Positions 1-47,481 of a DNA stretch of 53,188 nt are shown piece after piece (the stretch's first letter is position 1; each line of letters starts with the position of its first letter). This stretch comes from Flaviaesturariibacter aridisoli. Its GTDB lineage: Bacteria > Bacteroidota > Bacteroidia > Chitinophagales > Chitinophagaceae. A program made the translations under genes and the position numbers. Where the stretch lies: the NCBI RefSeq assembly GCF_004343705.1, contig NZ_SKFH01000034.1, positions 1 to 53,188 of the forward strand, given 5' to 3'. A model generated the notes under the pieces. The model did not search any database. It had not been told where the DNA came from and saw nothing but the letters and a program-made list of their open reading frames with translations.

Positions 1-98
1 GGCGTGAGGCGTGAGGCGTGAGGCGTGAGGCGTGAGGCGTGAGGCGTGAGGCGTGAGGCGTGAGGCGTGAAGCGTGAAGCGTGAGGCGTGAGGCGTGA
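1..98. repeat. Heptanucleotide tandem array, unit GGCGTGA, 14 copies
   Basis: Fourteen head-to-tail 7-bp units begin at the first base of the window. Units 11 and 12 (71-84) are the variant AGCGTGA. The array touches the left edge, so it probably extends further. It lies in a non-coding spacer upstream of the AIM24-family gene and is one of several 7-bp-period arrays in this window with unrelated unit sequences. Confidence 0.95.
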
Positions 99-114
99 AG
101 CGCCCCATACCGTC

Positions 115-268
115 CCGTCATTGCGAGGAGGACGGCGTGAAGCGCCGGCTGACGAAGCCCGTCCGACTGGCGTCAGCCGGGCGGGCAAGCCTACCCTCGC
201 CGGCTCCGCTGCCCCTTGGCCGCGGACTGGTCGTGAAACAGATTGCTTCGCTTCGCTCGCAATGACGG
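115..268. repeat. Dispersed inverted-repeat element, CCGTCATTGCGAG ends
   Basis: The 13-bp arm CCGTCATTGCGAG (115-127) is repeated as its exact reverse complement CTCGCAATGACGG (256-268), enclosing about 128 bp. Arms of the type GTCATTGCGAG...CTCGCAATGAC are known from dispersed intergenic repeats in many bacterial genomes, Bacteroidota included. No protein is supported in this stretch. Confidence 0.7.
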
Positions 269-300
269 ACACAAGGGGCCAACCGGAAACCAGAAACCGG

Positions 301-328
301 AAACTATAAACTATAAACTATAAACTTT
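301..328. repeat. Heptanucleotide tandem array, unit AAACTAT
   Basis: Three perfect AAACTAT units (301-321) are followed by a degenerate fourth (AAACTTT). The array stops 5 bp before the start codon of the AIM24-family gene, so it occupies the promoter-leader position and its A/T content may contribute to promoter function. That role is inference. Confidence 0.85.
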
Positions 329-333
329 CCCAC

Positions 334-1128
334 ATGACTTCCCACGAAATCGACTACCGGATCATCGGTGAAGAAATGCAATGCGTCGAGATCGAGCTCG
401 ACCCGAACGAAACGGCGGTGGCCGAAGCCGGCGCCTTTATGATGATGGACGACGGCATCCAGATGGAGACCATCTTCGGCGACGGCCGCGCCCAGAGCCA
501 GGGCCTCATGGGCAAATTGTTCTCGGCGGGCAAGCGCCTGCTCACGGGCGAGAGCCTCTTCATGACCGCGTACACCAACATCAACAGCCACGGCAAGCGC
601 AAGGTGTACTTCGCCTCGCCCTATCCCGGCAAGATCATCCCGCTCGACCTGCTCCGCCTCGGCGGCAAGATGATCTGCCAGAAGGACGCCTTTCTCTGCG
701 CCGCCCGCGGCGTGAGCGTGGGCATCGAGTTCCAGCGCAAGCTCGGCACCGGCCTCTTCGGCGGCGAGGGCTTCATCATGCAAAAGCTCGAGGGCGACGG
801 CATGGCCTTCGTGCACGCGGGCGGCCACATCCTGGAGCGCCACCTCAATCCCGGCGAAACCCTCAAGATCGACACCGGCTGTATCGTAGCCTTCACCCCC
901 TCCTGCCACTACGACATCCAGTTCGTAGGCGGCATCAAGAATACCATCTTCGGCGGCGAAGGCCTCTTCTTCGCCACCCTCAGCGGCCCGGGCACGGTCT
1001 GGATCCAATCGCTGCCCATCTCCCGCCTGGCCAGCCGCATCCTGCAGTTCGGCTCCGTGGGCGGACGGAAAGAAGAAGGAGGCGTGTTGGGTGGATTAGG
1101 GAATATGCTGGATGGAGATGGATGGTAG
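334..1128 (+). CDS. AIM24 / TIGR00266 family protein
   Basis: A 264-residue protein of the AIM24 (old DUF124, TIGR00266) family, a beta-rich fold found in bacteria and in mitochondrial AIM24. The biochemical role in bacteria is unknown. Family features seen are the glycine-rich middle ([14 protein letters not shown]), the segment [17 protein letters not shown] near residues 180-196 and the following [20 protein letters not shown] with GPGTVW, close to the usual C-terminal block. The length is normal for the family. There is no signal peptide or membrane segment, so it is probably cytoplasmic. The ATG lies directly after a heptamer array, without a clear Shine-Dalgarno. It is monocistronic, with a terminator about 50 bp downstream. 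A short stretch very similar to codons 180-195 recurs at 3124-3171. Confidence 0.9.
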
Positions 1129-1135: not shown

Positions 1136-1163
1136 GCTGATGTCGGATGTCTGATGTCTGATG
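1136..1163. repeat. Heptanucleotide array, units like TCTGATG
   Basis: Four 7-bp units (GCTGATG, TCGGATG, TCTGATG, TCTGATG) lie between the AIM24 stop codon and its terminator. The same unit family recurs at 32246-32266, again just after a gene, and inverted at 32311-32339. Confidence 0.8.
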
Positions 1164-1180
1164 TGATTGATAAAACAAAA

Positions 1181-3200: not shown

Positions 3201-3686
3201 CTACACTTCTCCGAGCGCCTCGTTCACACTTACTATCGCGCCAATCACACCTACCCACATTCCATCCACGAACCCGCTCTCCTTCCCCGCAATGAAACGG
3301 AACACGCCTGCAACAGAATGGGGCCCGCCTGCAAACGCATGCAACAACCCCGCAATCGCATCCGGCCCGGTCCGGAAAGCATCCGCCCCAGCCCGGAAAG
3401 CATCCGCCCCAGCCCGGAAAGCATCCGCCCGGCCCGCAGGGCCATTCGTCACACCTGCAAAGGCCTTTGAGCAGTTCGCGAATGCCCAATCGACTGCTAC
3501 AATGGCATAAAACCGGCCCGCAAACGCATAAAGCGTACTTGCAAAGGCATCCGTCCATCCTGCAACCGGGCACGACGCACCTACAACGGGGTAAAACGAC
3601 TTTGCAACGGCACCTGCACCTGCTTCCCTGTCATAAATCGTTGTCACCGTGTCATAAAGTGGGGTTGCAACGGGTAAATTTTTCAT
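3201..3686 (-). CDS. Heptapeptide-repeat protein (23 units of 7 residues)
   Basis: A 161-residue open frame from ATG (3684-3686) to TAG (3201-3203) divides exactly into 23 heptapeptides with no leftover residue. The consensus is x-x-x-x-A-F-A, where positions 5-7 are small/hydrophobic. Clear units are GWTDAFA, STLYAFA, NCSKAFA and GLLHAFA. Three adjacent copies around 3362-3424 are nearly identical at DNA level, a 21-bp tandem repeat. No signal peptide, cysteine pattern or known domain is seen. It is divergent from the gene at 3902, sharing a 215-bp spacer. The 21-bp period also gives heptad patterns in other frames, but only this one is uninterrupted over the whole array and begins with ATG. 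Whether the protein is made, and its role, are unknown. Confidence 0.5.
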   Translation of the reverse strand: MKNLPVATPLYDTVTTIYDREAGAGAVAKSFYPVVGASCPVAGWTDAFASTLYAFAGRFYAIVAVDWAFANCSKAFAGVTNGPAGRADAFRAGADAFRAGADAFRTGPDAIAGLLHAFAGGPHSVAGVFRFIAGKESGFVDGMWVGVIGAIVSVNEALGEV

Positions 3687-3901: not shown

Positions 3902-4600
3902 ATGGCAAAAGCAAAAGCCTTTACCAAAAAGCAGGAATCCCAGTACAACATGCTGGAGCGCGTCGACAGCATTGCCCTGCGCCACGAAAGCACCATCAAC
4001 TCCGTCCCCGCCCTGCGGCGCCACTTCGGCCGCATGCGGCAGATCAAGGCGAATTTGTCCCGCACCCGCGACGCCCGCTTTACCGGCTCCGAAGGCGCCA
4101 CCGACAGCAAAGGCGGCGCGGCCGGACTGCTCACGACGGCCCTGCAGGAAGTGGGCAACGTGCTCTTGGGATTCGCCAACGACACCGACAACCACGAACT
4201 CCGCGCACTTACCGACCGCCCCGACTCCTATTACACCCGCGTGCGCGACGGCGAGCTGCCCGGACTCGCCGAACGCTACCTCGCCGCCGCCCGCCGCTAT
4301 AGCACCGAGCTGGCCGACTACGGCCTCAGCGACGACGCCATCGCCAACCTCGAGGCCAACAAGGGCCGCTACGAAGAACAGGCCCAGGCGCCCACCGTGG
4401 CCATCACCGACGGCAAGGGCAACACCCGCGACCTCTCCACCGGCTTCACCGAGGTGAACAAGCTGCTGGCCGAGAAGATCGATCCTGTCATCCGCGGCCT
4501 CCGCAGCAAGTACCCCGACCTCGCCCGCGACTACAACGAAGCCCGCGTCATCCGTAGAAACCCGGTGCATCGTAAACCGGAGACGGAGAGCAGTTTGTAG
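3902..4600 (+). CDS. Conserved-looking hypothetical protein, predicted helical
   Basis: A 232-residue soluble protein, rich in Ala, Arg, Asp and Glu and probably mostly helical (long charged stretches such as KKQESQYNMLERVDSIALR). The N-terminus is very basic (MAKAKAFTKKQ). I see no known catalytic motif, signal peptide or membrane segment. Codon use is like the high-GC core genes, so it is probably native. The ATG at 3902 lies 215 bp from the divergent heptad-repeat gene. The stop codon TAG (4598-4600) is formed by the last three bases of the first unit of a TTTGTAG heptamer array, and a terminator follows at 4661. Function unknown. Confidence 0.75.
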   Translation: MAKAKAFTKKQESQYNMLERVDSIALRHESTINSVPALRRHFGRMRQIKANLSRTRDARFTGSEGATDSKGGAAGLLTTALQEVGNVLLGFANDTDNHELRALTDRPDSYYTRVRDGELPGLAERYLAAARRYSTELADYGLSDDAIANLEANKGRYEEQAQAPTVAITDGKGNTRDLSTGFTEVNKLLAEKIDPVIRGLRSKYPDLARDYNEARVIRRNPVHRKPETESSL

Positions 4601-4635
4601 TTTGTGGTTTGTAGTTTGTAGTTTGTAGTTTGTAG
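4594..4635. repeat. Heptanucleotide tandem array, unit TTTGTAG, 6 copies
   Basis: Six consecutive units (second one TTTGTGG) start inside the last codons of the preceding gene, so the first unit supplies its TAG stop codon. In frame, the repeat reads as a stop in its first copy, which protects the upstream gene from expansion or contraction of the later copies. Confidence 0.9.
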
Positions 4636-4660
4636 TTGCGCGAAGCGACGATATCAAAAA

Positions 4661-12266: not shown

Positions 12267-15200
12267 TCATCGCCCTGACAACCACAGCTGCACCGTTTTC
12301 TGCCGCCCGCCCGTTGTCAGCTTCAGGTAGTAGGCCCCGTTGGCCAGGTGATACCGGCTGAAGTCCAGCTCCAGCAGCGAGGTCGCGTTGGATAACACCT
12401 GTTTCTCCACCAGCATCCTATCGCCAGTGCCGGTATAGAGGGCGTACGAGAGTTCACCCTGCAGCGGTTCGGAAAATTGCACAAACACGCGCCGCGTACG
12501 GGACGGGTTCGGGTAGAGCTGCAGCTGCAGTTCGTTGGCGCGCACTGCGGCCTTGCCGGCTTCATCGTCTGTACTACGCCCGGTAGCCGTTGTTGCCTGG
12601 TCCACTACAGAGAAGTTCAGGGTGAGCGCCGCGCCGCCCGTACCCGAGCCGCCCGGGCCCGTGAACGGCGTTGCCAGTAGTGTGTAGGAACCGGGCGCCG
12701 GCGTCCAGGCGTTGTAGTTGCCCGCATTGTCGCCGAAGAGCGCATAAGGTGCCCCCGACTCGGAGACATTGCGCGTTTGGGATCCGCTCAGCGAAAAAAC
12801 GACGCTGCCAACCGTACCCGGCGAGGTGTTGGCCCGGATATTCAGGCTCCGGCTGGGCAACGTGGCCAGGTTGATCGTCGTCTCGTTGGTCAGATCCTGG
12901 ATCGCCTGTTCGTTGCTGGCGTTGATCAGGGTAAAAGAGGTCACCGCTTGTCCCGGGGAGGCAGCGTTGACAAACACAGTCACCTGGTCGGGTGTGCTGC
13001 TGGCACCACCGTTGTCGGTCACCACCAGGGCGAACACATAAGTGCCTTGCACCAGCCCGCTCACCGTGGGTGCTGCCAGGGTCTTGCTGCTGAAACTGGC
13101 CGTATTGGGACCGCTCACCTGGCTCCAGGTGTAGCCGGCAACGGTGCCGTCGCCATCGGTGCCCGACCCATTGAGCGTGGTGGAACTGGCGGGCAGCGTG
13201 ATCGTCTTATCGGCGCCCGCATTAGCGACGGGAGGCGTGTTGGTGCCCGTGCTGTTGCTGAGCACCTCGATCGCGGACACTTTCGCATTATCCTTACCAC
13301 CGACTGCCGTGAGCGAGCTGAAGTCGATGTTGAGCGTGCCATCGGTGACCGTCACCACAAAGGTTTCGGTAGTGGCGGTAAAGGCGCCTGCTTTGGCAAA
13401 GATGTCGTAGTTGTCGAGCCGCTTCACCCCTTCGATCATGACATCAAACACGCGGTTGTTGGCGGAAGTCCAATAGATCTCGGCAAAGTGCAGCACCACT
13501 TTGTAGGTGCCGTTGGATACAGGCAGGGCATAGCCAAACGAGTTGCCCCAGCGTTCGCTCTGGTAGAGGGCATCATCGGTAGTGCCCCCGATAGCGGTTG
13601 CAACGCTGAAGGTGTTGCCCGGCGACGGCGCAAAGCTGTTGTCGGCGGCAAAGGTGCCGATGCTGTTGGTCAACGAAGGGCCACCCGCATTAATACGGTA
13701 GAAGACCGAGTTGGTTGCGGCACCATTCACTTGTACGGTCACCGGGTCTGCCGCGCTGCTCGGAGCCCCGTTGTTGTCGGTCACCACGAGTGCAAACACG
13801 TAGCTGCCCTGCACCAACCCGCTCACCGTGGGACTGGCCGCTGTTGCATTGCTAAACGTGGCGGCGTTGGGGCCGCTCACCTGGGTCCAGCTGTAGCCGG
13901 TCACCGTACCGTCGGCGTCGGTGCCCGAGCCGTTGAGCGCCGTGGAGCTGGTGGGCAGGGTAATCGTTACATCGGCGCCCGCGTTGGCCACCGGCGGCTG
14001 GTTCGCAGGCGGTGCCGTGCTGTTGCTGAGCACCTCGATAGCGGACACTTTAGCGTTGTCCTTTCCACCCACCGCCGTCAGCGAACTAAAGGCGATGTTC
14101 AGGGTACCATCGGTTACATTGACCACGAAGGTTTCGGTGGTGGCCGTGAAGGCACCTACCTTGGCGAAGATGTCGTAGTTGTCCAGCTTCTTCACCCCTT
14201 CGATGCTTACGTCGAACACGCGGCTGTTGGCGGCGGTCCAGTAGATCTCGGCAAAATGCAGCACTACTTTGTATTGGCCGTTGCTGACCGGCAGGGCATA
14301 GGAAAAGGAATTGCCCCAGCGCTCGGTCTGGTAGATCGCGTCGTCGGTGGTGCCGTTGATGGCAGTGGTAACACTGTGCGTGTTGCCGGGCGCCGGCGAA
14401 AAGCGATTGTCCGCAGCGAAGACGCCCATGCTGTTGGTCACGGAGGGCCCACCCGCATTAATACGGTACAGCGGTGTAGAAGCAGCCTGGTCGGTAGTGA
14501 CGTAGAGATTATCCCAGGTAGCGGTAAACGCCGGTCCTCCGCTGGAGGTTGAAATAATGCCTACTGCCAGGATCGTGGTTCCCCTCAGCGCATTCAGTAC
14601 GGCCCCGCTCATCGGAATGGGTGCACCTACGTTGATGGCTGTGCCACGGTTGGACGCGTATGCCGGCTGCACACTGCCGGTAGCCGGGTCGTATTTGAGC
14701 AGCAGCTCCAGGTTGGTCCCGGGAATGCCGCCGGAGATCGCGTACTGGGAGCTGGTAACGACCCCGGCATTTTCGTATACCACCTGGATACCACCCGCGC
14801 CGCCGTTGGCATTCAGCACGATCTTGAGGTAGTTGTCCTGGTCGCCGTTGCCCAGGAAGATGCCCTGCGATTGTGCTCCCTGCGGCGTTTGGTTATTGAA
14901 GAAGGGCCCGGTCATCGAAGAGCGGAACGTGAAGGCCGCGCCGTTCGTTTTGACGCCGAACTGGAACCCGTATTGTTGGGTATTCAGGGAACCGAGCGCG
15001 TCGCCCGCCGGCACGTCCACCACGGAGAAGGCACCGATAGCACCGCCGGCGATCAGGTTGTCGTTGTTATACAGCTTCTGGTAATCGCTGTCGTGGTTGC
15101 TCATGAGGCCGGTGAAGCCCACGCCGAAGAAGCCCGTGCCGGGGTCGTTGTTGAAGAGATCGTAGTTCACGGGCAACGTGCGGGTACTGCCGTTGGAGGC

Positions 15201-17021
15201 ATCGATGGCGAAAGCGTCGGTCTTGTCGTTGATCCCGTCGTTGTCATCGTCCGGATCATTGAGGTCCGAGATATGATCGCCGTCAAAGTCGGCGGGCTTG
15301 CTGGCGCCCGAGCAGGGGTTGGTGCCGTTGGCGATCTCGTCGGCATTGGTATAGCCATCGCCGTCCTCGTCGGTTGTATTGTTGGCGCCGGTGCAGGTGC
15401 CGATCGATTGCGGCTCAAAGATGGTGACTGCGTCGGCGCCGTAGGTCAGTGCCCAAACGGTGCCGGGAAAGGGGTCGTTGTCGCCCTGGGCCACCAGGTC
15501 AATGGGTGTGGCGCCGAAGTTGGAGGCGAAGTCGGGCTCCTGGTTCAGCTTCGTCAATGGGTCGCGGGCATTGGTCACGCCGGTGCCGTCGGCGGTCAGC
15601 TTGATGACCGCGATAGCGCCGTTGTATTCCGCGGCCAGCAAACAGCCCTTGAGCGCACCGTTGAAATTGGAGGCGGTGTATTCCGTAATCCCGTTGGTGG
15701 ATGAGGTGAAGGTCAGCGGCGCGCCGTCTTCCGTGCCCGGCATTTTAAAATCGCCCTGGCGCGGGTCGGCCATGCTTACGGGCACCGGCGGCCAGTTGGC
15801 CGGCAGCGGGTTCGGACCAGAAGTGCTGTTGCGGAATACGCCGGTAGTCCCATTATGGGTATACAGGCCGGCGCCGGCGGGATTGGCGCGGATCGGGCAG
15901 GGATGCCCGCCGTAAAAACTGCCGGGAACGTAGGTGTCGATGTTTCCGATGTAGTGAAAGTTGTCAAGGTTGTTCACCTGGCCCTCGGTGGCCGTGGGGC
16001 CTGTGGAGCCGGGCTCGCCGGGAACGTAATTGTTGGTCACATTGGCGGTGCCCTCGCCGGCCGGATAGCCGCCCCAGCCCTGGTTGGCGCCGTTGTCGAT
16101 CGTATAGAGCCGGCGCGCCTTCGTCAGCACGAGGTCGTAGGCATTGCGGTAACCCGACGAATAAATCTGAACCGGCCCGCCTGCCACGAGCATGGCCTGG
16201 TTGAGGCCGTCATTGCCACCAAAGGGATCGTTGGGATCACTGCCGTCGGGGTTGTTGGGCCGGGTGGGATCGTCGAGCGTCGGGAGATCGTATTTATACG
16301 TATTGTTTCCACTGCCTTTGGTGGGCATCGCCATGATGGTGTTCAGTTTGATGGAAAGAACAGCAGCTGCCAGCGCATATTCGTTGGTGTAATTGAAGTT
16401 GGTGGAGGGTGAGCCCGCATTGGTGAATCCGCCCACGGCGAGAAAAAGGGTGTTCGTCTGGTCATCGAGTTGCATGCCGTTCACGGAGTGGTATTCCTCC
16501 GAGCGGGGCAGGCCGCGCACGAGGTCGATCTTGACCCAGGCGCTGCCGTTCCAGGTGAGCATCGACAGTATCCCGGAGTTTGTATCCAGGTTGGTTTCGA
16601 GGCCGGCGCCGGTGGCGGCGCGGTAGTCGCTGGAGCTTACGTAGATCACGGGGTTCGCTGCTGTTCCTTTCACGAGTATGCCGGTGATCTGCCGGTGGGT
16701 TTCGGCGGCATTCACCGTTCCGTCGTCGTTATGATTCGGAATGGAATTGATGAGCGAGATTGTTTCGAAAGCGGTGGTCGAATAATCATTGGGGCCGTTG
16801 CGCCGGATGGTATGGACCCGGATAAAACCCGCCTGCTCTGCGATATACAGCCGACCGTCCGGACCAAATTGGAGGGAAGTCGGATTGAACACGGTGGCCC
16901 CGTTCACTAATTTCAAACCACTCGAAGAAAAGCTGTACTGCGCCTGGACCATGTTAACGAGAAAAGAAAGGAGCAGGCACGCAAGTGTACCGATACCGTT
17001 GCAGATTTTTTGCCGGAGCAT
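12267..17021 (-). CDS. T9SS-exported PQQ-sugar-dehydrogenase-like / malectin / PKD protein (paralogue 1)
   Basis: A 1584-residue secreted protein. Domains: signal peptide 1-27; six-bladed propeller like soluble quinoprotein sugar dehydrogenases, about 28-543 (QFGPDGRLYIAEQAGFIR, HSVNGMQLDD, GYRNAYDLVLT, IDNGANQGWGG); thrombospondin-3 calcium-binding repeats about 550-605 (DEDGDGYTNADE, DDDNDGINDK); concanavalin-like domain about 615-842; malectin about 850-1000; PKD about 1007-1100; second malectin about 1105-1257; second PKD about 1262-1352; a beta domain 1358-1480; and a T9SS type A sorting domain about 1500-1584 (LYPNPS). It should cross the outer membrane and be surface-bound or released, probably acting on or binding carbohydrate. 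Enzyme activity is inference. Unlike its two upstream paralogues it lacks the kelch module. Confidence 0.88.
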   Translation of the reverse strand: MLRQKICNGIGTLACLLLSFLVNMVQAQYSFSSSGLKLVNGATVFNPTSLQFGPDGRLYIAEQAGFIRVHTIRRNGPNDYSTTAFETISLINSIPNHNDDGTVNAAETHRQITGILVKGTAANPVIYVSSSDYRAATGAGLETNLDTNSGILSMLTWNGSAWVKIDLVRGLPRSEEYHSVNGMQLDDQTNTLFLAVGGFTNAGSPSTNFNYTNEYALAAAVLSIKLNTIMAMPTKGSGNNTYKYDLPTLDDPTRPNNPDGSDPNDPFGGNDGLNQAMLVAGGPVQIYSSGYRNAYDLVLTKARRLYTIDNGANQGWGGYPAGEGTANVTNNYVPGEPGSTGPTATEGQVNNLDNFHYIGNIDTYVPGSFYGGHPCPIRANPAGAGLYTHNGTTGVFRNSTSGPNPLPANWPPVPVSMADPRQGDFKMPGTEDGAPLTFTSSTNGITEYTASNFNGALKGCLLAAEYNGAIAVIKLTADGTGVTNARDPLTKLNQEPDFASNFGATPIDLVAQGDNDPFPGTVWALTYGADAVTIFEPQSIGTCTGANNTTDEDGDGYTNADEIANGTNPCSGASKPADFDGDHISDLNDPDDDNDGINDKTDAFAIDASNGSTRTLPVNYDLFNNDPGTGFFGVGFTGLMSNHDSDYQKLYNNDNLIAGGAIGAFSVVDVPAGDALGSLNTQQYGFQFGVKTNGAAFTFRSSMTGPFFNNQTPQGAQSQGIFLGNGDQDNYLKIVLNANGGAGGIQVVYENAGVVTSSQYAISGGIPGTNLELLLKYDPATGSVQPAYASNRGTAINVGAPIPMSGAVLNALRGTTILAVGIISTSSGGPAFTATWDNLYVTTDQAASTPLYRINAGGPSVTNSMGVFAADNRFSPAPGNTHSVTTAINGTTDDAIYQTERWGNSFSYALPVSNGQYKVVLHFAEIYWTAANSRVFDVSIEGVKKLDNYDIFAKVGAFTATTETFVVNVTDGTLNIAFSSLTAVGGKDNAKVSAIEVLSNSTAPPANQPPVANAGADVTITLPTSSTALNGSGTDADGTVTGYSWTQVSGPNAATFSNATAASPTVSGLVQGSYVFALVVTDNNGAPSSAADPVTVQVNGAATNSVFYRINAGGPSLTNSIGTFAADNSFAPSPGNTFSVATAIGGTTDDALYQSERWGNSFGYALPVSNGTYKVVLHFAEIYWTSANNRVFDVMIEGVKRLDNYDIFAKAGAFTATTETFVVTVTDGTLNIDFSSLTAVGGKDNAKVSAIEVLSNSTGTNTPPVANAGADKTITLPASSTTLNGSGTDGDGTVAGYTWSQVSGPNTASFSSKTLAAPTVSGLVQGTYVFALVVTDNGGASSTPDQVTVFVNAASPGQAVTSFTLINASNEQAIQDLTNETTINLATLPSRSLNIRANTSPGTVGSVVFSLSGSQTRNVSESGAPYALFGDNAGNYNAWTPAPGSYTLLATPFTGPGGSGTGGAALTLNFSVVDQATTATGRSTDDEAGKAAVRANELQLQLYPNPSRTRRVFVQFSEPLQGELSYALYTGTGDRMLVEKQVLSNATSLLELDFSRYHLANGAYYLKLTTGGRQKTVQLWLSGR

Positions 17022-17360
17022 AGTTGGATGTTTAGGTTAGCGATCATATATATAACAGGGTGAGCCACAATGCAGCTACCCGATTACAGGCCTGAGTACT
17101 GATACACTCATAAGCAAGGATTCAGGTGAGGTTATTGAATATGCAGGGGGAGGGAAGCGACGCAGGGAGCTTGCGCGCAGCAAGGATCTCACTACAAATA
17201 GAGTGCTAACAATTACTATTGACCGTATCTTCTTCGTTCTGAATCCGATTGAATTTTTTAGCGGAGCTTCCAGTCAACCACCCGCGCGCGGGTTTGTAGA
17301 AAAAACGATGCACGTTCACAGGATTCCCGCGCGGCCGGAACATCCCTTCTGCCCCTCCAT
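17022..17360. other. Gene-free spacer between paralogues 1 and 2
   Basis: No gene is supported. The part next to 17021 contains the A/T-rich stretch ATCATATATATAAC (about 17044-17057), whose minus-strand reading TATATATG is one mismatch from the TAnnTTTG -7 box. It is about 25 bp from the ATG of paralogue 1, so it is a candidate promoter. The rest shows no repeat or RNA that I recognise. Confidence 0.4.
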
Positions 17361-17363
17361 GAA

Positions 17364-17388
17364 AAAGGTGTCCCTGGGCGACACCTTT
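17364..17388 (-). terminator. Rho-independent terminator of paralogue 2
   Basis: Stem AAAGGTGTC (17364-17372) / GACACCTTT (17380-17388) with a 7-base loop. On the minus strand it is followed by TTTTTC. It lies about 60 bp past the stop codon of the 1658-residue gene and separates its transcript from paralogue 1. Confidence 0.85.
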
Positions 17389-17445
17389 CCGGCATTTACA
17401 TCCGGCTCCTATTGCATTGTCGTTATACGTACTCAAGTACGCCGG

Positions 17446-20400
17446 TCAGCGCCCGGTAAACAGGAGCTGGACGGTCTTCCGGCGGGCACCGGCGTTCAGC
17501 TCGAGGTAGTAGACACCGTTGGCCAGGTCATACCGGCTGAAGTCCAGCTCCAGTAGCGAGGTCGCGTTGGACAACACCTGTTTCTCCACCAGCATCCGGT
17601 CGCCGGCGCCGGTATAGAGGGCGTAAGAAAGTTCACCCTGCAGCGGTTCGGAAAATTGAACGAACACCCATCGCGTGCTGGATGGATTCGGGTATACCTG
17701 CAGCTCGAGGTCATCTGCCACGGACACCTCTTTGCCAGTACCGGAAGCACTGCTGCGCGCCGTTACCGTCGTCGTCGCCTGGTCCACCACCGAGAAGTTC
17801 AGGGTGAGCGCCGCGCCACCCGTACCTGAACCGCCCGGGCCAGTAAACGGTGTTGCCTGCAGCGTGTAGGAACCGGGTGCCGGCGTCCATGCGTTGTAAT
17901 TGCCGGCATTGTCGCCGAAGAGCGCATAGGGTGCCGCTGTTTCCGTCGCATTGCGCGTTTGCGATCCGCTCAGCGAAAAAACGACGCTACCTACCGTGCC
18001 CGGCGAGGTGTTGGCCCGGATGTTCAGGCTCCGGCTGGGCAGCGTGGCCAGGTTGATCGTGGCGCCATTGGCCAGGGTCTGGATGTCCTGCTCATTCGCG
18101 GCATTCACCAGTGTAAAGGAGCTGACAGCAGGGCCCGCCGGCGCAGCCGCGAGCACCTCGATAGCCGACACTTTCGCATTATCCTTTCCGCCCGCGGCTG
18201 TGAGCGAAGAGAAGTCAATGTTAAGTATGCCATCGGTGACGCTCACGGTGAACGTTTCTTTGGTGGCAGTAAAGGCGCCGGCCTTCGCTACGATATCGTA
18301 GTTATCGAGCTTCTTCACGCCTTCGATCATCACGTCGAACACGCGGCTGCCCGCGGTGGTCCAATAGATTTCCGCGAAGTGCAGCACTACGGTATACTGG
18401 CCATTCGCTACCGGCAATGCATACCCGAAGCTGTTTCCCCAGCGTTCCGTCTGGTAGATCGCATCGTCTGTGGTGCCGGCGATTGCTGTTGTGGTACTGC
18501 TCACATTGCCGGGTGCGGGCGAAAATTTGTTGTCTGCCGCAAAAACGCCGATGCTGTTGGTCACGGCGCCACCACCCGCATTGATACGGTACGATGCTGC
18601 GGCAGCACCTCCGCCGGTACCGCTCAGCGCGGTTGTGTTGCTGCCGTTGGAACCGGAGTGCGTCACCACGAGGCTGGCCGACTGGCTTCCCGTTGACGTC
18701 GGCCGGAACTGTACGCTGATCGTAACGCTTTGTCCTGCCGGCAGCACAAAGGGCACTGCGTTGGGCGAGGTATAAGAAAACGCTGCAGCGCCCGTGATGC
18801 TGATGGCCGAAATCAGGATGCCCTGGTTGCCGGTCGTGTTGGTGAGCACCAGCGATTGCGTTCCTGTTCCGTTCAACGCCACGGAGCCGAAGCTCAGCGT
18901 AGCCGGTGCCGTCAGCGCGCTTTGCGATAAGGCACTGCCACTGGGTGTGGTGGGGCCAGAGAAGTAGAAGGCTTCCTGCGTTGTCAACAGGGGCGTACCG
19001 CCACGGTTGCCTGGGCCCGCAGCTGTGTAGATGCCGCCGTTGCTGGCTATGGCCTGCGTGCCATGCCTTCCTTGCTGCAGGTTGGCGAGTGTGCGCCAGG
19101 TACCGGTGGAAACGTTCAGCGCTTCGGTCTGCACATGAGCAGCGGTTTGCGCGGCGCTTTCGCCACCGATCACGATCAGCTCATTGCCCAGCACCACGTT
19201 GCTGGCGCCCGAGCGCAACGTCGGCAGGTTGCTGCCCGCCGGAAGCGTAGACCAGGTATTGCTGTTGAAATCAAACACGTCTACCTGCGCTACGGCAAAG
19301 TCTAAATCCTGCCCGGTAGCCGCCGAGGAGCGTCGGCCACCGGCTACGTACAGTTTATTGTTGACAACCACTACCTGCACATGGTCGCGCTCGCGTGGCG
19401 CATCGGGAAGCGTGCGCCAGGTGTTGGTGGCCGGGTCGTATTCGTCGAACCACTTCACCCAGCCGGCCCAGTGGCCATCGGTGATGCCGCCTACGAGGTA
19501 GATCTTGTTGTTGAATACAACCGCGCCGCCCGCGCCGCGCCGCCGTGCCTGCGGTATCGTGGCGCCGGTGAACCAGGCATTGGAAGCGGGATTGTAGATA
19601 TACAGGTTGGCCACCGGCGTTTCGTGCGGGTAAGCACCGGTAAAGGCTCCCACAACGTAGATCAGCCCCTGCCAGCTCAGTGCCTGGAAGTGGTGCAGCT
19701 CCAACGGCTGGCTGGCCTTGTCCACCCAGGCTTTCGTTGCAGGATTGTATTCCTGAACGGGCTTGTTTCCGCGCCCGCCCAATAAGTAAAACTTGTTGCC
19801 GGCCTGCACGTACGCATTCTCCTCGCGGGGGTTAAAGTTGCCCGTGGCCGGGGTGAGCAGCTGCCAGCCGCCCGTTGCCGTAACAGCGTCGGCGTTCACG
19901 TAGAGATAGTCCCAGGTAGCGGTAAACGGAGAGCCACCTTTCGAGGTGGAGATGATGCCGACGGCGAGCACGGTCGTTCCTTTCAGCGCATTCAGCACAG
20001 CGCCGCTCACTACTACGGGGGTGCCGATGTTGGACACCGATCCGCCGTTTACGGCATAGGCAGCCTGCACGCTGTTGCTGTTTGGATTGAATTGCAGCAA
20101 GAGATCGATGGAGGATCCCGGGATGCCGCCGCTGATCGCATACTGGCTGCTGGAGGCGACGCCGGCATTCTCATATACCACCTGGATACCGCCCGTGCCG
20201 CCGTTGGCGTTCAGCACGATCTTCAGGTAGTTGTCCTGGTCGCCATTGCCCAGGTATATCCCCTGCGACTGCGCCCCTTGCGGCGTCGCATTGTTGAAGA
20301 AGGGGCCGGTCATGCGGCCGCGCAGGGTGAAGGGCACGCCGTTCGTACGCACGCCAAACTGGAAGCCGTTCTGTTGCTTGTTTTCACTACCCAGTGCGTC

Positions 20401-22422: not shown

Positions 22423-22627
22423 AGTTCACGATTTAGGTGTTGGTTAGCAAAAAGGCATTAGGGTGCTGCACGGCGCAGCCGTTCCATCGTTTGTCTATGT
22501 GGGGGAGGGCATCAGGTCGAATGTGTCCGGGCCATCCATGTCGGCACTTGTCGTTCAACAAGTCATCGGTTGTCCTGGGTCAGCATCGAGATCGGAAAGA
22601 AAGCCGCAAAAAGGATGCTGAAATACA

Positions 22628-22659
22628 AAACACATGAGCAGCCACCCGCTCATGTGTTT
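22628..22659. terminator. Strong hairpin between paralogues 2 and 3
   Basis: A perfect 12-bp stem AAACACATGAGC / GCTCATGTGTTT with an 8-base loop, flanked on the plus strand by GAAAAAAG and on the minus strand by TTTTGTATTT. It is the second hairpin downstream of paralogue 3, after the one at 22693-22723. It is most likely a back-up terminator. Being bidirectional, it fits the isolation of each paralogue as its own transcript. Confidence 0.7.
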
Positions 22660-31623: not shown

Positions 31624-32250
31624 ATGTTGGCAACGGCTACGAATGAATGGACGGGAACCGGCGCTGACGCCTTTTTCGCCGGCAACGCCTTTTATGTGGA
31701 AGAACGCCGCAGCCGCCTGCGCTCCCGCAACGAATTCGGCATCTGGGACGGCTCCGGCCAGCGCCTGGGCAGCCTCGTCCAGCGCGTATCGTTGGCGGGC
31801 CACTTCTTGCGCATCTTTCTCAAATCGTCCGTACTGCCCTTCCGCTTCCAGGTGACCGACCGCCAGGGCCGCCCCGTGGCCGCCATCCGCCGGGGATGGA
31901 CGCTCCTGGTATCGCGCACCGAAGTGATCGACAGCCGCAACGAAGTGATCGGGTTCCTGAAACACAAATACCGCTCGCGCAAGCCGCGCCTGAAGGTCTT
32001 CAACGCCGAAGGCAAAAAGATCGGCGAGGTGACCGGCAGCCAGAGCAGCTGGGACATGGCCATCATCGACCGCGACTACCATAGCTTCGGCAGCATCCGC
32101 GAATTCGATCCCAAAACCACGCCCGGCGACACCCGCGGCAAGAACACCTACTACATCGAGCTCAGCCGCGAGTCGATGTCGCCCGAAGAACGCCGCGTGA
32201 TGCTGGTCACCGCCATCGCGATCGACCGGCTGATCCTGGAGAATGGCTGA
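31624..32250 (+). CDS. Phospholipid scramblase / LURP-one-like protein
   Basis: A 208-residue protein with the tubby-like C-terminal fold of the scramblase/LURP-one family. Recognised elements are FYVEERRSRLRSRNEFGIWD near the N-terminus, LGSLVQRVSLAGHFLRIFLK, and PFRFQVTDRQGRPVAAIRRG followed by TLLVSRTEVIDSR. Next come VIGFLKHKYRSRKPRLKVFN, KKIGEVTG, and a last strand MLVTAIAIDRLI where the eukaryotic proteins carry a membrane-inserting helix. Bacterial members are uncharacterised, and scrambling activity is not implied. It has its own -7 box. The stop codon lies in the first unit of a CTGATG-type heptamer array, and a terminator follows at 32273. Confidence 0.82.
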   Translation: MLATATNEWTGTGADAFFAGNAFYVEERRSRLRSRNEFGIWDGSGQRLGSLVQRVSLAGHFLRIFLKSSVLPFRFQVTDRQGRPVAAIRRGWTLLVSRTEVIDSRNEVIGFLKHKYRSRKPRLKVFNAEGKKIGEVTGSQSSWDMAIIDRDYHSFGSIREFDPKTTPGDTRGKNTYYIELSRESMSPEERRVMLVTAIAIDRLILENG

Positions 32251-32339
32251 TCTCGGATGCCTGATATTTTTGAAAGGATCGCCCATCGATCCTTTTTCCG
32301 TTTAAAAAGGCATCAGACAACCTACATCAGGCATCAGCC
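32246..32339. repeat. Opposed heptamer arrays flanking a terminator
   Basis: Three units (GCTGATC, TCGGATG, CCTGATA; 32246-32266) are followed after the terminator by an inverted set of four (32311-32339, reading GCTGATG, CCTGATG, TAGGTTG and TCTGATG on the minus strand). The two sets are partly complementary, so the transcript could fold into a long outer stem around the terminator. The first unit overlaps the TGA stop of the scramblase-like gene. Confidence 0.75.
32273..32297 (+). terminator. Rho-independent terminator of the scramblase-like gene
   Basis: Perfect 9-bp stem AAAGGATCG (32273-32281) / CGATCCTTT (32287-32295), loop CCCAT, followed by TTCCG and preceded by TTTTTG. It lies 23 bp past the stop codon. 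Confidence 0.85.
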
Positions 32340-32421: not shown

Positions 32422-34089
32422 ATGTGTGGAATCGTAGGGGTCTTTGACCTGAAAAAGAAAGCAGACGACCTGCGCCCGCAGGCCCTCAATATGTCGCGCC
32501 GCCAGCGGCACCGCGGCCCCGACTGGTCAGGGATCTTCGTGTGCGAGAAATCGATCCTCGTACACGAGCGGCTCTCCATCGTGGACCCTGCTTCGGGAAA
32601 GCAGCCACTGTTCAGCCCCGACGGGTCGCTGGCACTCGCCGTCAATGGCGAGATCTACAACCACCGCGAGCTCAAGAAGAACCTTCGGCAGCCGTACACG
32701 TTCCAGACGCAGTCCGACTGTGAAGTGATCCTGGCGCTGTACGCGGAAAAAGGCACGGACTTCCTCGAAGACCTCAACGGCATTTTCGCTTTCGCCCTCT
32801 ACAACCACAACGACGATACGTACCTCATCGCCCGCGACCATATGGGCATCATCCCGCTGTATATGGGCTGGGACGAATGGGGCACTTTCTATGTCGCCTC
32901 CGAGCTCAAAGCCCTTGCCGGCGTGTGCACGAAAATCCAGGAATTCCCCCCCGGCCACTTCCTCGACAGCCGCACCGGCACGCCGGTAACATGGTACCAG
33001 CGCGAGTGGACCGATTACGATGCCGTGAAAGAAGCGGTGACCGATATACAAGCGGTGAAAAAAGCGCTGGAGGAAGCGGTGCACCGCCAGCTCATGTCGG
33101 ACGTACCGTATGGTGTGCTGCTTTCCGGCGGCCTCGATTCTTCGGTGATCTCGGCGATCGCCAAAAAATTCGCTGCCCGTCGCGTGGAGACCGAAGACCT
33201 GAAAGACGCCTGGTGGCCGCAGCTCCACTCCTTTGCCGTGGGCCTCAAAGATGCACCCGACCTCGTGGCCGCCCGGAAGGTGGCCGACCATATCGGCACC
33301 GTGCACCACGAAGTGCACTTCACCATCCAGGAAGGCCTCGACGCCATCCGCGATGTCATCTACCACATCGAGACCTACGACGTCACCACGATCCGCGCCT
33401 CCACCCCGATGTACCTGCTGGCCCGCGTCATCAAGTCGATGGGGGTGAAGATGGTGCTTACCGGCGAAGGCTCCGACGAGCTGTTCGGCGGCTACCTGTA
33501 TTTCCACAAGGCGCCCGACGCCAAGGCCTTTCACGAAGAAACCGTGCGCAAGCTGGGCAAGCTGCACCAGTACGACTGCCTGCGCGCCAACAAGTCGCTG
33601 GCGGCCTGGGGCGTGGAAGGACGCGTGCCCTTCCTCGACAAGGAGTTCATGGACGTAGCGATGCGCTGCAACCCGAAAGACAAGATGAGCGGCAACGGCA
33701 AGATCGAGAAGTGGATCCTTCGCAAGGCCTTTGAAGACTACCTGCCGGCCGAAGTGACCTGGCGCCAGAAGGAGCAATTCTCCGATGGTGTAGGTTACAG
33801 CTGGATCGACACGCTGAAAAAAGTGACGGCGGAAGGCGTCACCGATGAGCAGCTCGCCAATGCCGCCTTCCGCTTCCCGGTGAATACGCCGCGCTCGAAA
33901 GAAGAATATTACTACCGCAGCATTTTCGCCGAGCATTTCCCCGGCGACGAGGCCGCCCGCTGCGTTCCTTCGGAGCCTTCCGTAGCCTGCAGCACCGCCA
34001 TCGCGCTGGAGTGGGACGAGGCATTCAAGAAAATGAACGACCCTTCGGGCCGCGCCGTAAAGAGCGTGCACGAGCAGGCGTACAAATAG
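32422..34089 (+). CDS. asnB: Asparagine synthetase B (glutamine-hydrolysing)
   Basis: A 555-residue enzyme that converts aspartate, glutamine and ATP to asparagine, glutamate, AMP and PPi. The mature protein begins at MCGIVGVF with catalytic Cys2, so the ATG at 32422 is certain; a longer upstream frame is rejected. The glutaminase domain (about 1-200) shows RHRGPDWSG, LVHERLSIVDP and NGEIYNHREL. The synthetase domain shows the PP-loop LLSGGLDSSVIS (about 233-244), VLTGEGSDELFGGYLYFHKA, and GVEGRVPFLDKEFMDVAMRC. Length matches E. coli AsnB (554). It is monocistronic behind a hairpin leader, and a 38-bp palindrome lies just after the stop. Confidence 0.96.
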   Translation: MCGIVGVFDLKKKADDLRPQALNMSRRQRHRGPDWSGIFVCEKSILVHERLSIVDPASGKQPLFSPDGSLALAVNGEIYNHRELKKNLRQPYTFQTQSDCEVILALYAEKGTDFLEDLNGIFAFALYNHNDDTYLIARDHMGIIPLYMGWDEWGTFYVASELKALAGVCTKIQEFPPGHFLDSRTGTPVTWYQREWTDYDAVKEAVTDIQAVKKALEEAVHRQLMSDVPYGVLLSGGLDSSVISAIAKKFAARRVETEDLKDAWWPQLHSFAVGLKDAPDLVAARKVADHIGTVHHEVHFTIQEGLDAIRDVIYHIETYDVTTIRASTPMYLLARVIKSMGVKMVLTGEGSDELFGGYLYFHKAPDAKAFHEETVRKLGKLHQYDCLRANKSLAAWGVEGRVPFLDKEFMDVAMRCNPKDKMSGNGKIEKWILRKAFEDYLPAEVTWRQKEQFSDGVGYSWIDTLKKVTAEGVTDEQLANAAFRFPVNTPRSKEEYYYRSIFAEHFPGDEAARCVPSEPSVACSTAIALEWDEAFKKMNDPSGRAVKSVHEQAYK

Positions 34090-34095
34090 CGATGA

Positions 34096-34133
34096 ACCGA
34101 TTAATGAGTTAACCGGTTAATTCATTAATCGGT
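34096..34133. repeat. 38-bp near-perfect palindrome
   Basis: ACCGATTAATGA at 34096 is mirrored by TCATTAATCGGT ending at 34133, with the internal palindrome TTAACCGGTTAA at the centre. Only one base pair (G against T) fails to match over 19-bp arms, and there is no loop. It starts 7 bp after the asnB stop and ends 41 bp before the PAS-kinase ATG. It lacks a U-run, so it is not a standard terminator. It could be an operator, a processed hairpin or a repeat. TAACTTTC (34133-34140) next to it resembles a -7 box. Confidence 0.8.
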
Positions 34134-34173
34134 AACTTTCGCGGTCTCTACCCAAAGCCCCAGGGCTCTTTGC

Positions 34174-37351: not shown

Positions 37352-37358
37352 AGGGAAG

Positions 37359-37379
37359 TTTGGAGTTTGGAGTTGGTGT
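37359..37379. repeat. Short heptanucleotide array, unit TTTGGAG
   Basis: TTTGGAG, TTTGGAG, TTGGTGT follow one another 8 bp from the CheR start codon, within the 59-bp gap between CheR and the response-regulator gene. The same unit recurs at 47360-47387, also just outside a start codon. Confidence 0.65.
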
Positions 37380-37782: not shown

Positions 37783-37872
37783 ACGCTTGCCCTGCGGGCC
37801 TTTTTTCGTTGAATAGTTAATTGGTTGATTGGTTAATTGGTAACAAGGACCTGCCAACCGTTCAACGCTTAA

Positions 37873-37937
37873 ACTCATTACTGATTGCTCATTACTCTTT
37901 ACTCATCATCCCATTATCCCATTGCCCCATTATCCCA

Positions 37938-37940
<3 letters not shown>
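37873..37940. repeat. Mixed heptamer/octamer tandem array overlapping a stop codon
   Basis: Five 7-bp units (ACTCATT, ACTGATT, GCTCATT, ACTCTTT, ACTCATC; 37873-37907) pass into 8-bp units (ATCCCATT, ATCCCATT, GCCCCATT, ATCCCATT; 37908-37939). The TAA stop of the 1345-residue kinase (37938-37940, minus strand) lies within the last unit. A further 8-bp array (TTAATTGG, TTGATTGG, TTAATTGG) sits at about 37817-37840, so most of the 155-bp gap between the kinase and the regulator is repeats. Confidence 0.85.
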
Positions 37941-45519: not shown

Positions 45520-45524
45520 GACGA

Positions 45525-45944
45525 TTAGTGAATGGTGAAAAAGATTTTAATGCGATAGATAACGGTTTCGCCGACCGACTGGACTGTCTTTGCCATAGAG
45601 TATTTATACGGCTGCAGACCACCATTGAGTTCGAACCGGAAACTCGTCTCCATCGTATCTCCGGGCATATCGGTCACCGTGGTGACCACGTTCAGAAACT
45701 GCCCGCGGAGTGAATTGTTGGTCCCGATGGCGCAGCCGTTGATCGCCCCTTGCTGGTTGGATACGATGGGGCTACCATCCACGGAAATATCTGTTTGCGA
45801 AAGCTGCCCGGTATCTCCGGGGATCACATTCACGGTAATGGGCTCGTCCGTCTGTGCGATTTTATACAGGTCGAAATGCACCGTTTCCTGGGAACTGGGT
45901 GCAACAACAGGGGGAACAATGTTACCCTGAGTATTGTCAGGCAT
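45525..45944 (-). CDS. Hypothetical protein in a cell-wall-lysis-associated cluster
   Basis: A 139-residue protein without a signal peptide, starting MPDNTQGNIVPPVVAPSSQE. It is predicted mostly beta, with Thr/Val-rich strands (ETVHFDLYKIAQTDEPITVN, NVVTTVTDMPGDTMETSFRF, KTVQSVGETVIYRIKIFF). A segment INGCAIGTNNSLRGQ resembles a polar loop. It is probably cotranscribed with the secreted protein 5 bp downstream and with the amidase-lysozyme 39 bp upstream. Function unknown. Its conserved-looking strands suggest a structural or binding module rather than an enzyme. Confidence 0.7.
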   Translation of the reverse strand: MPDNTQGNIVPPVVAPSSQETVHFDLYKIAQTDEPITVNVIPGDTGQLSQTDISVDGSPIVSNQQGAINGCAIGTNNSLRGQFLNVVTTVTDMPGDTMETSFRFELNGGLQPYKYSMAKTVQSVGETVIYRIKIFFTIH

Positions 45945-45983
45945 AAAAAAGTTTTAGTAGTTATTTAAATGAAATGGTTACCG

Positions 45984-47351
45984 TCACGAGAAATACAAAT
46001 CCGCCTCCTCATCCCGCCGCTTCGTCAGCCCGGCGATCTCCACCAATTGCCCGTCTACATGCGCCTTGTTCCACATGCGGAAGGCCTCACGGATGCTCGG
46101 GTCTTCGGGGTTGGCGTTGACGCGCCGCAGGAGGGTGGAGCCGCGCAGCGCTTCGGTGCCCACGTTATAGGCGAAGCTTACGAGGGCGTCGAACTGGTTC
46201 TGATTGAGCTTTGGGTTCTGGATCATCCGCTTTACCGTTTCACTCTTCTCCTCCACCTCCATGGCCAGCAGCGTCTCGGCGCGGTCGGAGGTGATCTGGT
46301 CGCCGGGCTTCACCTTGCTGCGGTCTTCGTAGAGGATGGAGCCGTAGCCGATCGTCCAGATGCCGGCGCTGTCCTGGTAGGCCGAGAGCTTGAATCCTTC
46401 GTGCGACTTGATGAAGTCGATACACTTCTGGTCGGGACGGTAGCCCAGTAGCGGAGCACCACCGCTCGCAGACCCATCCCCCAACCCCTTCCCCAAGGTA
46501 AGGGGGGCGGCCCTCACCCCCGACCCCGCTCCGGGGGAGAGGGGAGCTGCTGCTGCACCCAACTGGATGCCGCCGCTCCAGCAATAGTTGCCGTTACGGT
46601 CTTTGTACCACACGCGGTTGTTATTCACCGGCTCGCCGTTGTCGATGCGGGCCACGAGCTGCAGTGGCGTGCGGGCGGCAAGGGTTTGCACAAGCCCGGC
46701 GCGGGTGCTCGGTGCGCTGCGCAGGTTGAGCTTCACCAGCGTATTGGCTGTTGCCGACACGGGTGTTTCGGTATAGGCCGGCGCCCCGCCCTGGCCGGTG
46801 CACTCGTTGTACTCCGTTACCACGTCCTGCAGCAGGCGCTCGTAGGTGCGGCGGCTGTGGGCGAGACCGGTCACGGGGTCGGTCTTGCGTTTGGGGTCGA
46901 GGAAGAAGTGGCCTACGACCGAGGTGGCCGGGTCGAGCTTGAACTCGTAGCAAAGCTTCGCCAGCAGCCATACGTACTTGGCGTAGCTCTTGTCGTCGTC
47001 GATGCCGCCGCCATAGCAGTATTCCACGCCGATGGCGGAGTCGTTGGCGTCGGCGCCGTAGAGCTCATTGTCCTTGGGCATGTTGTACAGCACGTGCCAG
47101 GCCTTTTCGGGCCGTGACAACAGTGCGGGCACACACTCGAGGATCTCTTTATCGTCCACGAACAGGTGCGCCGAGGCCGACTGCCCGTTGGCGGTGCTGA
47201 TGTAATAGTTGACATTCATGCGGGCCGATGAGCCGGGGTTTCCGGTGTCGTGGGCCACGATGAACTTAACGGGACCGAGCATGCGCCCGCTGCGGCGCCG
47301 GGTGCCGCTGGGAAGGAGTTGGGCCGAGATGGCGTATTTATCCTGGAACAT
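45984..47351 (-). CDS. Bifunctional peptidoglycan hydrolase: amidase_2 - SH3 - GH24 lysozyme
   Basis: A 455-residue protein. An N-acetylmuramoyl-L-alanine amidase domain (about 25-185) shows zinc-site residues His34 (IVAHDTGNPG), His148 (VVGHFFLDPKRKTDP) and Asp158, plus Glu110 in IGVEYCYGGG. A bacterial SH3-like domain lies at about 203-264 (KLNLRSAPSTRAGLVQTL, WYKDRNGNYCWSG). A Gly/Ala/Pro linker spans 265-303. A GH24 phage-type lysozyme domain (about 305-455) has Glu318 in FIKSHEGFKLSAYQDSAG and IWTIGYGS with the Thr. It would cut both the amide bond and the glycan backbone. No signal peptide is present, so export needs a holin-like or other route; the neighbouring membrane protein 47492-48175 is a candidate partner (inference). 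Phage endolysin-like, but no other phage genes are adjacent. Confidence 0.92.
   Translation of the reverse strand: MFQDKYAISAQLLPSGTRRRSGRMLGPVKFIVAHDTGNPGSSARMNVNYYISTANGQSASAHLFVDDKEILECVPALLSRPEKAWHVLYNMPKDNELYGADANDSAIGVEYCYGGGIDDDKSYAKYVWLLAKLCYEFKLDPATSVVGHFFLDPKRKTDPVTGLAHSRRTYERLLQDVVTEYNECTGQGGAPAYTETPVSATANTLVKLNLRSAPSTRAGLVQTLAARTPLQLVARIDNGEPVNNNRVWYKDRNGNYCWSGGIQLGAAAAPLSPGAGSGVRAAPLTLGKGLGDGSASGGAPLLGYRPDQKCIDFIKSHEGFKLSAYQDSAGIWTIGYGSILYEDRSKVKPGDQITSDRAETLLAMEVEEKSETVKRMIQNPKLNQNQFDALVSFAYNVGTEALRGSTLLRRVNANPEDPSIREAFRMWNKAHVDGQLVEIAGLTKRRDEEADLYFS
46476..46553. repeat. Palindromic GC-rich element inside the lysozyme linker
   Basis: The linker-coding bases contain two adjacent C-rich/G-rich half-palindromes, CCCCTTCCCC...AAGGGG (about 46494-46506) and CCCCCGACCCCGCT...GGGGGAGAGGGG (about 46517-46544). 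These resemble the dispersed CCCTCACCCC-type intergenic repeats of many genomes. They translate into the low-complexity linker between SH3 and GH24 domains. Confidence 0.65.
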
Positions 47352-47359
47352 AAAAACAG

Positions 47360-47481
47360 TTTGTGGTTTGGAGTTGGGGGTTTGGAGTCGGGTGGATTGG
47401 TCGAATGGTCTATTGGTCTATTGGTAACTGGTTCGGCGCAACACCTACTCATTACTCATTACTCATTACTCATTACTCATT
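47360..47481. repeat. Three tandem arrays in one 140-bp spacer
   Basis: TTTGTGG, TTTGGAG, TTGGGGG, TTTGGAG (47360-47387) are followed by an 8-bp-like array of TCTATTGG units (about 47408-47423) and then by five perfect ACTCATT units (47447-47481). The spacer between the amidase-lysozyme and the membrane-protein gene is therefore almost wholly repeats. The string ATTGGTAAC ends the middle array here and the array near 37836. Confidence 0.88.

What the first reader, a model, noticed from the sequence alone, without database searches (positions are those of the whole stretch)
1..47481. Many unrelated intergenic tandem arrays share a 7-bp period
At least seven spacers carry short head-to-tail arrays whose unit is 7 bp but whose sequences differ: GGCGTGA x14 (1-98), AAACTAT x3-4 (301-328), CTGATG-type (1136-1163, 32246-32266 and inverted 32311-32339), TTTGTAG x6 (4594-4635), TTTGGAG-type (37359-37379, 47360-47387), ACTCATT x5 (37873-37907, 47447-47481). 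A few pass into 8-bp units. A common period without common sequence suggests a generating mechanism (slippage or a structure-directed copying process) that counts seven bases, like the STRR heptamers of cyanobacteria. The 21-bp repeat gene at 3201-3686 is a multiple of the same period.
Basis: partly seen in the sequence, partly recalled or inferred. Interest (0 to 1): 0.7.

Follow-up and report, generated by a model that had tools for sequence, protein, structure and literature searches.

The report
Inverted heptamer arrays framing intergenic spacers
Short seven- and eight-letter DNA words are repeated right after the ends of many genes in this bacterium, often as facing mirror-image pairs, and two related species often keep such arrays in the same gaps while spelling them with different words.

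Summary
The 7-bp period is real. In 1.25 Mb of this genome (29%, not a random sample) perfect tandem runs lie in spacers 80 times at period 7, against 0, 2, 17 and 5 times at periods 5, 6, 8 and 9; shuffled spacers give under one. The arrays are not unrelated: they belong to about ten recurring 7- or 8-bp word families, start a median 3 nt after a stop codon, point outward from the gene (199 edges against 22) and often frame a spacer as inverted arms of one family (38 of 51 two-armed spacers; 7.6 expected). Orthologous spacers in congener G016 keep the armed state (25 both, 33 neither, 13 discordant; p=1.5e-7), yet by eye 12 of those 25 carry a different family. With G010 the armed state is not significantly shared (p=0.18), the two-arm state is (p=0.003). 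Slippage alone does not explain orientation, pairing or shared words. I favour dispersed repeat families that evolve in concert, lengthened by slippage, copied between loci, and tolerated or weakly selected as fold-backs at gene ends. Closest precedent: paired GGGAATC heptamers of Xanthomonas. Word turnover at fixed positions is what my searches did not find in print.

The parts
1..102 (+). GGCGTGA array (family A, GTGAGSC), at the contig start
   Evidence: 3 of 21 contig starts carry such an array
281..326 (-). AACCGGA passing in register to AAACTAT (reverse of GTTTATA type), just before the start of gene 334-1128
   Evidence: read
1137..1164 (+). CTGATGT array (family D) just after gene 334-1128 (AIM24 family)
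4592..4637 (+). TTTGTAG array (family C); contains the stop codon of gene 3902-4600
32246..32266 (+). degenerate family D left arm after the scramblase-like gene
   Evidence: read by eye
32311..32339 (-). degenerate family D right arm, inverted, upstream of asparagine synthase gene 32422-34089
   Evidence: read by eye
34095..34135 (.). octamer-like words (GATTAATG / GGTTAATT), self-inverted
   Evidence: read by eye
37357..37374 (+). TTTGGAG array (family C)
37808..37841 (+). octamer GTTAATTG array (family F type), left part of spacer 37783-37937
37873..37906 (-). ACTCATT array (family H, inverted)
37904..37940 (-). octamer CATTATCC array
47360..47392 (+). TTTGTGG/TTTGGAG array (family C)
   Evidence: (47365-47392), extended by eye
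47396..47425 (+). octamer ATTGGTCT array (family F)
47446..47481 (-). TACTCAT array (family H, inverted)

Best explanation
The arrays are members of about ten dispersed short-repeat families, unit 7 or 8 bp, in the gap between a gene's stop codon and the next gene's start region or stop codon. Each family has a fixed outward orientation and often frames a spacer as two inverted arms, so a transcript through it could fold back. SHOWN: period bias, families, orientation, stop-codon anchoring, inverted framing, and (own genome against G016) shared armed state at orthologous spacers with a frequently different word. INFERRED: arrays lengthen and shorten by slippage; words spread between loci and become uniform within a species by copying (recombination, gene conversion or an unidentified mobile process); the fold-back is tolerated, or weakly selected as a transcript-end hairpin, at particular gene junctions, so site and layout persist while the word turns over.
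For: Period. Orientation: of 708 spacers, 199 edges carry a family word pointing outward from the gene, 22 the opposite way; a grouping that did not use my family list shows the same for the commonest words, e.g. AAACTAC left-minus 8, right-plus 14, right-minus 1. Both edges armed in 51 spacers against 14.0 expected; same family in 38 against 7.6. Left edge against inverted right edge of the same spacer scores 12 or more in 61 of 612, 0.6% with swapped partners, 0 in direct orientation, 2 of 391 across the same gene. 3'-side arms start a median 3 nt after the stop codon, quartiles -2 and 6, n=127; 33 of 127 contain the stop codon. Own/G016 armed state: neither 33, only G016 5, only own 8, both 25, odds ratio 20.6, p=1.5e-7. 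Two-armed state over all compared spacers: odds ratio 19.5 (G016, n=71), 8.2 (G010, n=56). Family by eye: G016 same 8, related variant 4, partly shared 1, different 12 of 25; G010 same 3, partly shared 1, different 11 of 15. Species-specific variants, counted by hand in the listing: G009 10 of 10 places and G005 4 of 4 only GTTTGG[AG]; G013 8 of 8 only GTTTGT[AG]; G016 5 of 9 only GTTTGT[AG], 4 mixed. At own C7:4254-4383 both arms are of TTTG type in the own genome, while in G016 both carry TTTACAG and one private TTTAGAAG unit around a partly conserved interior (by eye).
Against: No copying agent was found. Arms of one spacer match each other hardly better than arms of other spacers of the same family: mean rank 0.58, p=0.085, n=38; family C even slightly worse, 16.5 against 18.5. 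That speaks against strong arm-to-arm copying and against strong selection for pairing. 97 spacers have one arm, 51 both. The armed state is not significantly shared with G010 (odds ratio 2.4, p=0.18) and only modestly between G016 and G010 (p=0.038). Among spacers armed in both, two-arm state is shared with G010 (p=0.007) but not significantly with G016 (p=0.12). Same-family interiors are little more alike than others (0.245 against 0.189). Terminators are not enriched in armed spacers (codirectional 12 of 101 armed, 60 of 283 unarmed). The family words were chosen, part of the sample tested.
Confidence: 0.5

Rival explanations
1. Function first: the arms are kept by selection because their fold-back acts at the transcript end (3'-end stability, read-through or antisense boundary), or because a protein binds the repeated word; the word is free to drift as long as both arms change.
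For: Two-arm state shared across species with different words (and by eye); arms rare in divergent spacers (4 of 145 against 20 of 99 convergent); private variants present in both arms of some spacers, e.g. own C1:13749, C5:31336.
Against: 97 of 148 armed spacers have one arm; 13 of 51 two-armed spacers mix families; no general arm-to-arm matching; terminators not enriched. Conserved position could equally mean that only these gaps tolerate arrays: unarmed spacers are more conserved in sequence (mean edge score 16.0/16.1 against 13.2/9.5).
Confidence: 0.25
2. Slippage alone: polymerase favours 7-bp duplications in unconstrained DNA, as proposed by Mrazek 2007 (known here only through citing papers).
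For: Strong excess of period 7 outside genes.
Against: Does not give outward orientation (199:22), same-family inverted pairs (38 against 7.6) or shared words at many loci.
Confidence: 0.1
3. Terminal inverted repeats of a mobile element (MITE, or REP elements moved by RAYT transposases).
For: Dispersed, inverted, oriented, lineage-specific families; own genome has 7 matches to the RAYT family PF01797.
Against: Interiors not conserved. Heptamer runs in 2 of 20 RAYT loci; the two further own RAYT loci read by eye are flanked by REP-like hairpins. In the discordant own/G016 pairs, length armed minus unarmed is a median 8 nt, though several 'unarmed' ones look armed by eye.
Confidence: 0.12
4. 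Assembly artefact or chance.
For: 3 of 21 contig starts lie in arrays; draft genome of 84 contigs.
Against: Shuffles give under one run; framing in single-contig congeners: G003 6 of 75, G015 9 of 73, against about 0.55% swapped.
Confidence: 0.03

Closest known systems
GGGAATC repeats of Xanthomonas (Rehm et al. 2015, PMC4692102; passages and sections 10 and 14 read)
   Same: Intergenic heptamer arrays, 2-26 units in Xcc, nearer the upstream gene than the downstream one; 70 (Xcc) and 75 (Xac) cases of two arrays facing each other; [quoted passage not shown]
   Different: One G-rich word there. Here about ten words per genome, 7 and 8 bp, and orthologous spacers often carry different words.
TAACTGA direct repeats (MacGregor 2015, PMC4679880; abstract, passages and sections 12 and 24 read)
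   Same: Intergenic heptamer arrays beside genes, also in five Bacteroidetes, with other heptamers noted in some of the same spacers.
   Different: Mostly within several nt upstream of a start codon; here anchored at stop codons and often inverted pairs.
Prokaryotic long simple sequence repeats, heptanucleotide class (Mrazek 2007; not read, known only as cited in the two papers above)
   Same: Heptamers the commonest category in most genomes, as cited.
   Different: The proposed slippage does not give orientation or pairing.
STRR heptamers of cyanobacteria (recalled; only a search listing seen)
   Same: 7-bp tandem units in spacers.
   Different: Inverted framing and word turnover not checked there.
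BrickBuilt MITE of Porphyromonas gingivalis (PMC4596501; outline and abstract read)
   Same: Dispersed intergenic tandem array with small inverted-repeat ends, in an organism I recall as Bacteroidota.
   Different: 23-bp unit inside a defined element; here no conserved interior.

Membership tests
Heptanucleotide long simple sequence repeats | Tandem 7-bp units longer than chance, mostly intergenic | tested here: met
   80 non-coding and 2 coding period-7 runs; three shuffles give 2 in all
Heptanucleotide long simple sequence repeats | Local origin by slippage | tested here: inconclusive
   Orientation and pairing not explained by it; lengthening by slippage not excluded
Xanthomonas GGGAATC-type paired heptamers | Facing inverted pairs in one spacer | tested here: met
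   61 of 612 spacers against 0.6% swapped (includes non-heptamer pairs); 38 of 51 same family
Xanthomonas GGGAATC-type paired heptamers | Single G-rich, quadruplex-capable word | tested here: not met
   About ten word families; the listed words have no run of three G except AAGTGGG and a few single cases
TAACTGA repeats | Placed within several nt upstream of start codons | tested here: not met
   Median 3 nt after the stop codon on the 3' side (n=127); 11.5 nt from the start codon on the 5' side (n=72)
REP elements moved by RAYT | The repeat flanks the rayt gene | tested here: not met
   Heptamer runs in 2 of 20 RAYT loci, 5 of them own; two more own loci read by eye show REP-like hairpins
MITE | Conserved interior between terminal inverted repeats | tested here: not met
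   28 interiors: same family 0.245 (50 pairs), different family 0.189 (328 pairs)
MITE | Target-site duplication and empty sites | not tested
   Only one genome per species was held
Cyanobacterial STRR | Defining sequences and distribution | not tested
   Only a search listing seen

The most novel reading that the evidence does not exclude
The genus keeps a sequence-independent fold-back mark at chosen gene ends: site and one- or two-arm layout are inherited, while the word is replaced in concert across the genome of each species. That would imply a trans-acting reader or copier with a drifting, lineage-specific word preference, a bacterial parallel to the concerted evolution of satellites.
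Probability: 0.2. Interest if true: 0.8.

Novelty: new variant of a known kind. Interest (0 to 1): 0.55.

Why it matters
Heptamer arrays of bacteria have mostly been treated as slippage products or as one word per genome. A genus in which position and layout of the arrays persist while the word changes separates two questions, what makes the word and what keeps the site, and lets both be tested by comparing species. If the fold-back has a function, it would be a sequence-free mark at transcript ends; if not, it is a clean case of concerted evolution of dispersed repeats in bacteria.

Tried and rejected
In 38 relatives the degenerate word is confined to the genus, 12 of 18, though the reversed control also has 1-5 hits in five congeners and 1 in another genus.

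RAYT/REP: rejected. MITE with fixed interior: rejected. Arms framing terminators: suggested, not borne out. Arm-to-arm copying (quasi-palindrome correction): weak, mean rank 0.58. Integron attC sites and TRAP, Csp or Rho binding were considered from recall and not tested.

Limits: genes come from my own simple codon-model caller; the own sample is contig starts plus runs of C1-C5, C7, C9 and C11; G016 and G010 stretches were chosen because own stretches L018, L058 and L014 are rich in arms and syntenic. Of 197 own spacers, 86 (G016) and 67 (G010) had an orthologue; 71 and 56 entered the tables after length limits. The inverted-match test also counts non-heptamer pairs and could count a terminator hairpin in a short spacer. 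In G016, 5 of 113 spacers pass the same score in direct orientation.
Full report
What was given. The finding says that spacers of this window carry short tandem arrays with a 7-bp unit and unrelated sequences, and suggests a generating process that counts seven bases.

Observation. One search confirms the arrays at the stated places, with small corrections, and adds octamer arrays in the same spacers. The window is contig C34 of a 4.37-Mb draft in 84 contigs. Three of its large proteins end in T9SS sorting domains over the curated cut-off, which I recall as typical of Bacteroidota. In 453 kb the spacers hold 31 perfect period-7 runs, 0 at periods 4-6, 8 at period 8 and 3 at period 9. In 1.253 Mb the figures for periods 5, 6, 7, 8, 9 are 0, 2, 80, 17, 5 in spacers and 2, 17, 2, 0, 11 in genes; shuffled spacers give 2 period-7 runs in three repetitions.

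Not unrelated words. Reading the spacers and grouping consensus words shows recurring families. I defined ten: 7-bp GTGAGSC, GGAAGTS, GTTTGKR, GTTTAYA, GATGTCK, ATYTCRG-type and GAGTAAT, and 8-bp TTGGTYTA, GGTTAATY and GAKTACAT. Words are used in one orientation, reading outward from the gene into the spacer, whether that gene end is a 5' or a 3' end: 199 edges against 22 (708 spacers, threshold 13; of 300 shuffled edges 99% score about 10 or less, maximum 15). The families were chosen, which is part of the tested sample, but choosing an orientation cannot by itself give splits such as 41 to 2 (families A and C); the blind grouping shows the same trend, with exceptions.

Inverted framing. The left edge of a spacer matches the inverted right edge of the same spacer at score 12 or more in 61 of 612 spacers, against 0.6% for swapped partners, 0 in direct orientation, and 2 of 391 for the two flanks of one gene. 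By gene orientation: convergent 20 of 99, codirectional 37 of 368, divergent 4 of 145. Some of these pairs are not heptamers. With the ten families, both edges are armed in 51 spacers (14.0 expected) and share the family in 38 (7.6 expected); 97 spacers have one arm only. Samples of congeners show the framing too: G003 6 of 75, G015 9 of 73, G016 17 of 113 (with 5 in direct orientation), G010 17 of 113; two other genera of the family gave 0 of 26 and 1 of 19, which is too few to tell.

Anchoring. On gene 3' sides the arm starts a median 3 nt after the stop codon (n=127), on 5' sides 11.5 nt from the start codon (n=72). In 33 of 127 cases the array contains the stop codon, as at window 4592-4637. 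Intrinsic terminators are not enriched in armed spacers.

Same places, different words. Own stretches rich in arms are syntenic with G016 and G010, the long syntenic matches being 70-87% identical. With a family-free detector that of 164 shuffled spacers armed, own and G016 share the armed state: 33 neither, 5 and 8 discordant, 25 both, odds ratio 20.6, p=1.5e-7; own and G010: 19, 9, 13, 15, odds ratio 2.4, p=0.18; G016 and G010 p=0.038. Two-armed state over all compared spacers: odds ratios 19.5 and 8.2; among spacers armed in both, p=0.12 (G016) and 0.007 (G010). By eye the 25 own/G016 pairs are: same family 8, related variant 4, partly shared 1, different 12; the 15 own/G010 pairs: 3 same, 1 partly shared, 11 different. 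Edges of armed orthologues are less alike (13.2 left, 9.5 right) than edges of unarmed ones (16.0, 16.1), which may mean turnover of arms, weaker constraint, or both. Words also differ by species: in the listing, 10 of 10 places in G009 and 4 of 4 in G005 use only GTTTGG[AG], 8 of 8 in G013 only GTTTGT[AG].

Mechanism. The pattern needs something beyond local slippage, because unlinked spacers share words and orientation. A fixed inserted element is unlikely, because interiors are not shared. RAYT/REP is unlikely. Copying from one arm to the other is at most a weak tendency, although some spacers share private variants in both arms. I therefore favour concertedly evolving dispersed families with slippage, and tolerance or weak selection of the fold-back at gene ends (0.5); selection for a hairpin or binding site as the main cause is the strongest rival (0.25).

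Elsewhere. (TTTGTAG)x3 occurs in at least 110 stretches of named genomes from several phyla. In the 80 held loci, other heptamer runs are commoner than any other period tested (112 at period 7 against 7 or fewer at any other of periods 4-12), and in 7 of 80 an inverted partner lies within 350 nt, each time word first and inverse second, while 9 of 80 have a direct partner. Within the window's phylum the word is rare, so it is not universal.

Known work. The nearest is Rehm et al. 2015 on GGGAATC in Xanthomonas, with facing pairs and conserved positions but one word. MacGregor 2015 describes TAACTGA arrays upstream of start codons. My searches of the open PMC library listed no account of several word families replacing one another at fixed positions; subscription papers are not covered, and one search did not run.

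Noticed in passing
window 3201-3686 and upstream of gene 3902-4600; L093, L096, L102, L103: A degenerate 21-bp array without 7-bp sub-period lies upstream of a gene with no Pfam match that has 10 matches in the own genome. Of 9 own loci examined, 5 have a strong 21-bp array there; the consensuses read by eye are unrelated to each other. In G011 locus L095 a TACGAAG heptamer array lies in the upstream region.
   Followed up: partly
own C11:28412-28604, C11:6278-6472, C7:28205-28388: Other spacers are framed by longer inverted words that are not simple heptamers (AGAGAAAGAACGCAGAT, CGTCATTGCGAGCGAAGC, GCCCCCTGTCCCCC), also in congeners.
   Followed up: partly
own C5:42788, C12:11646 and five further own loci: Seven own matches to the Y1/RAYT transposase family; the two read by eye are flanked by REP-like hairpins.
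   Followed up: partly
L110, L152: The (AACTACA)n array seems to lie inside a coding region that I recall as murB-like in two Patescibacteria contigs (by eye; no family search made).
   Followed up: no
starts of contigs C11, C13, C34: 3 of 21 contig starts examined lie in heptamer arrays, against 48 of 5320 random 150-nt pieces: assembly breaks there, so true arrays may be longer.
   Followed up: yes
window 12267-29180: Three very large proteins with T9SS type A sorting domains in a row.
   Followed up: no
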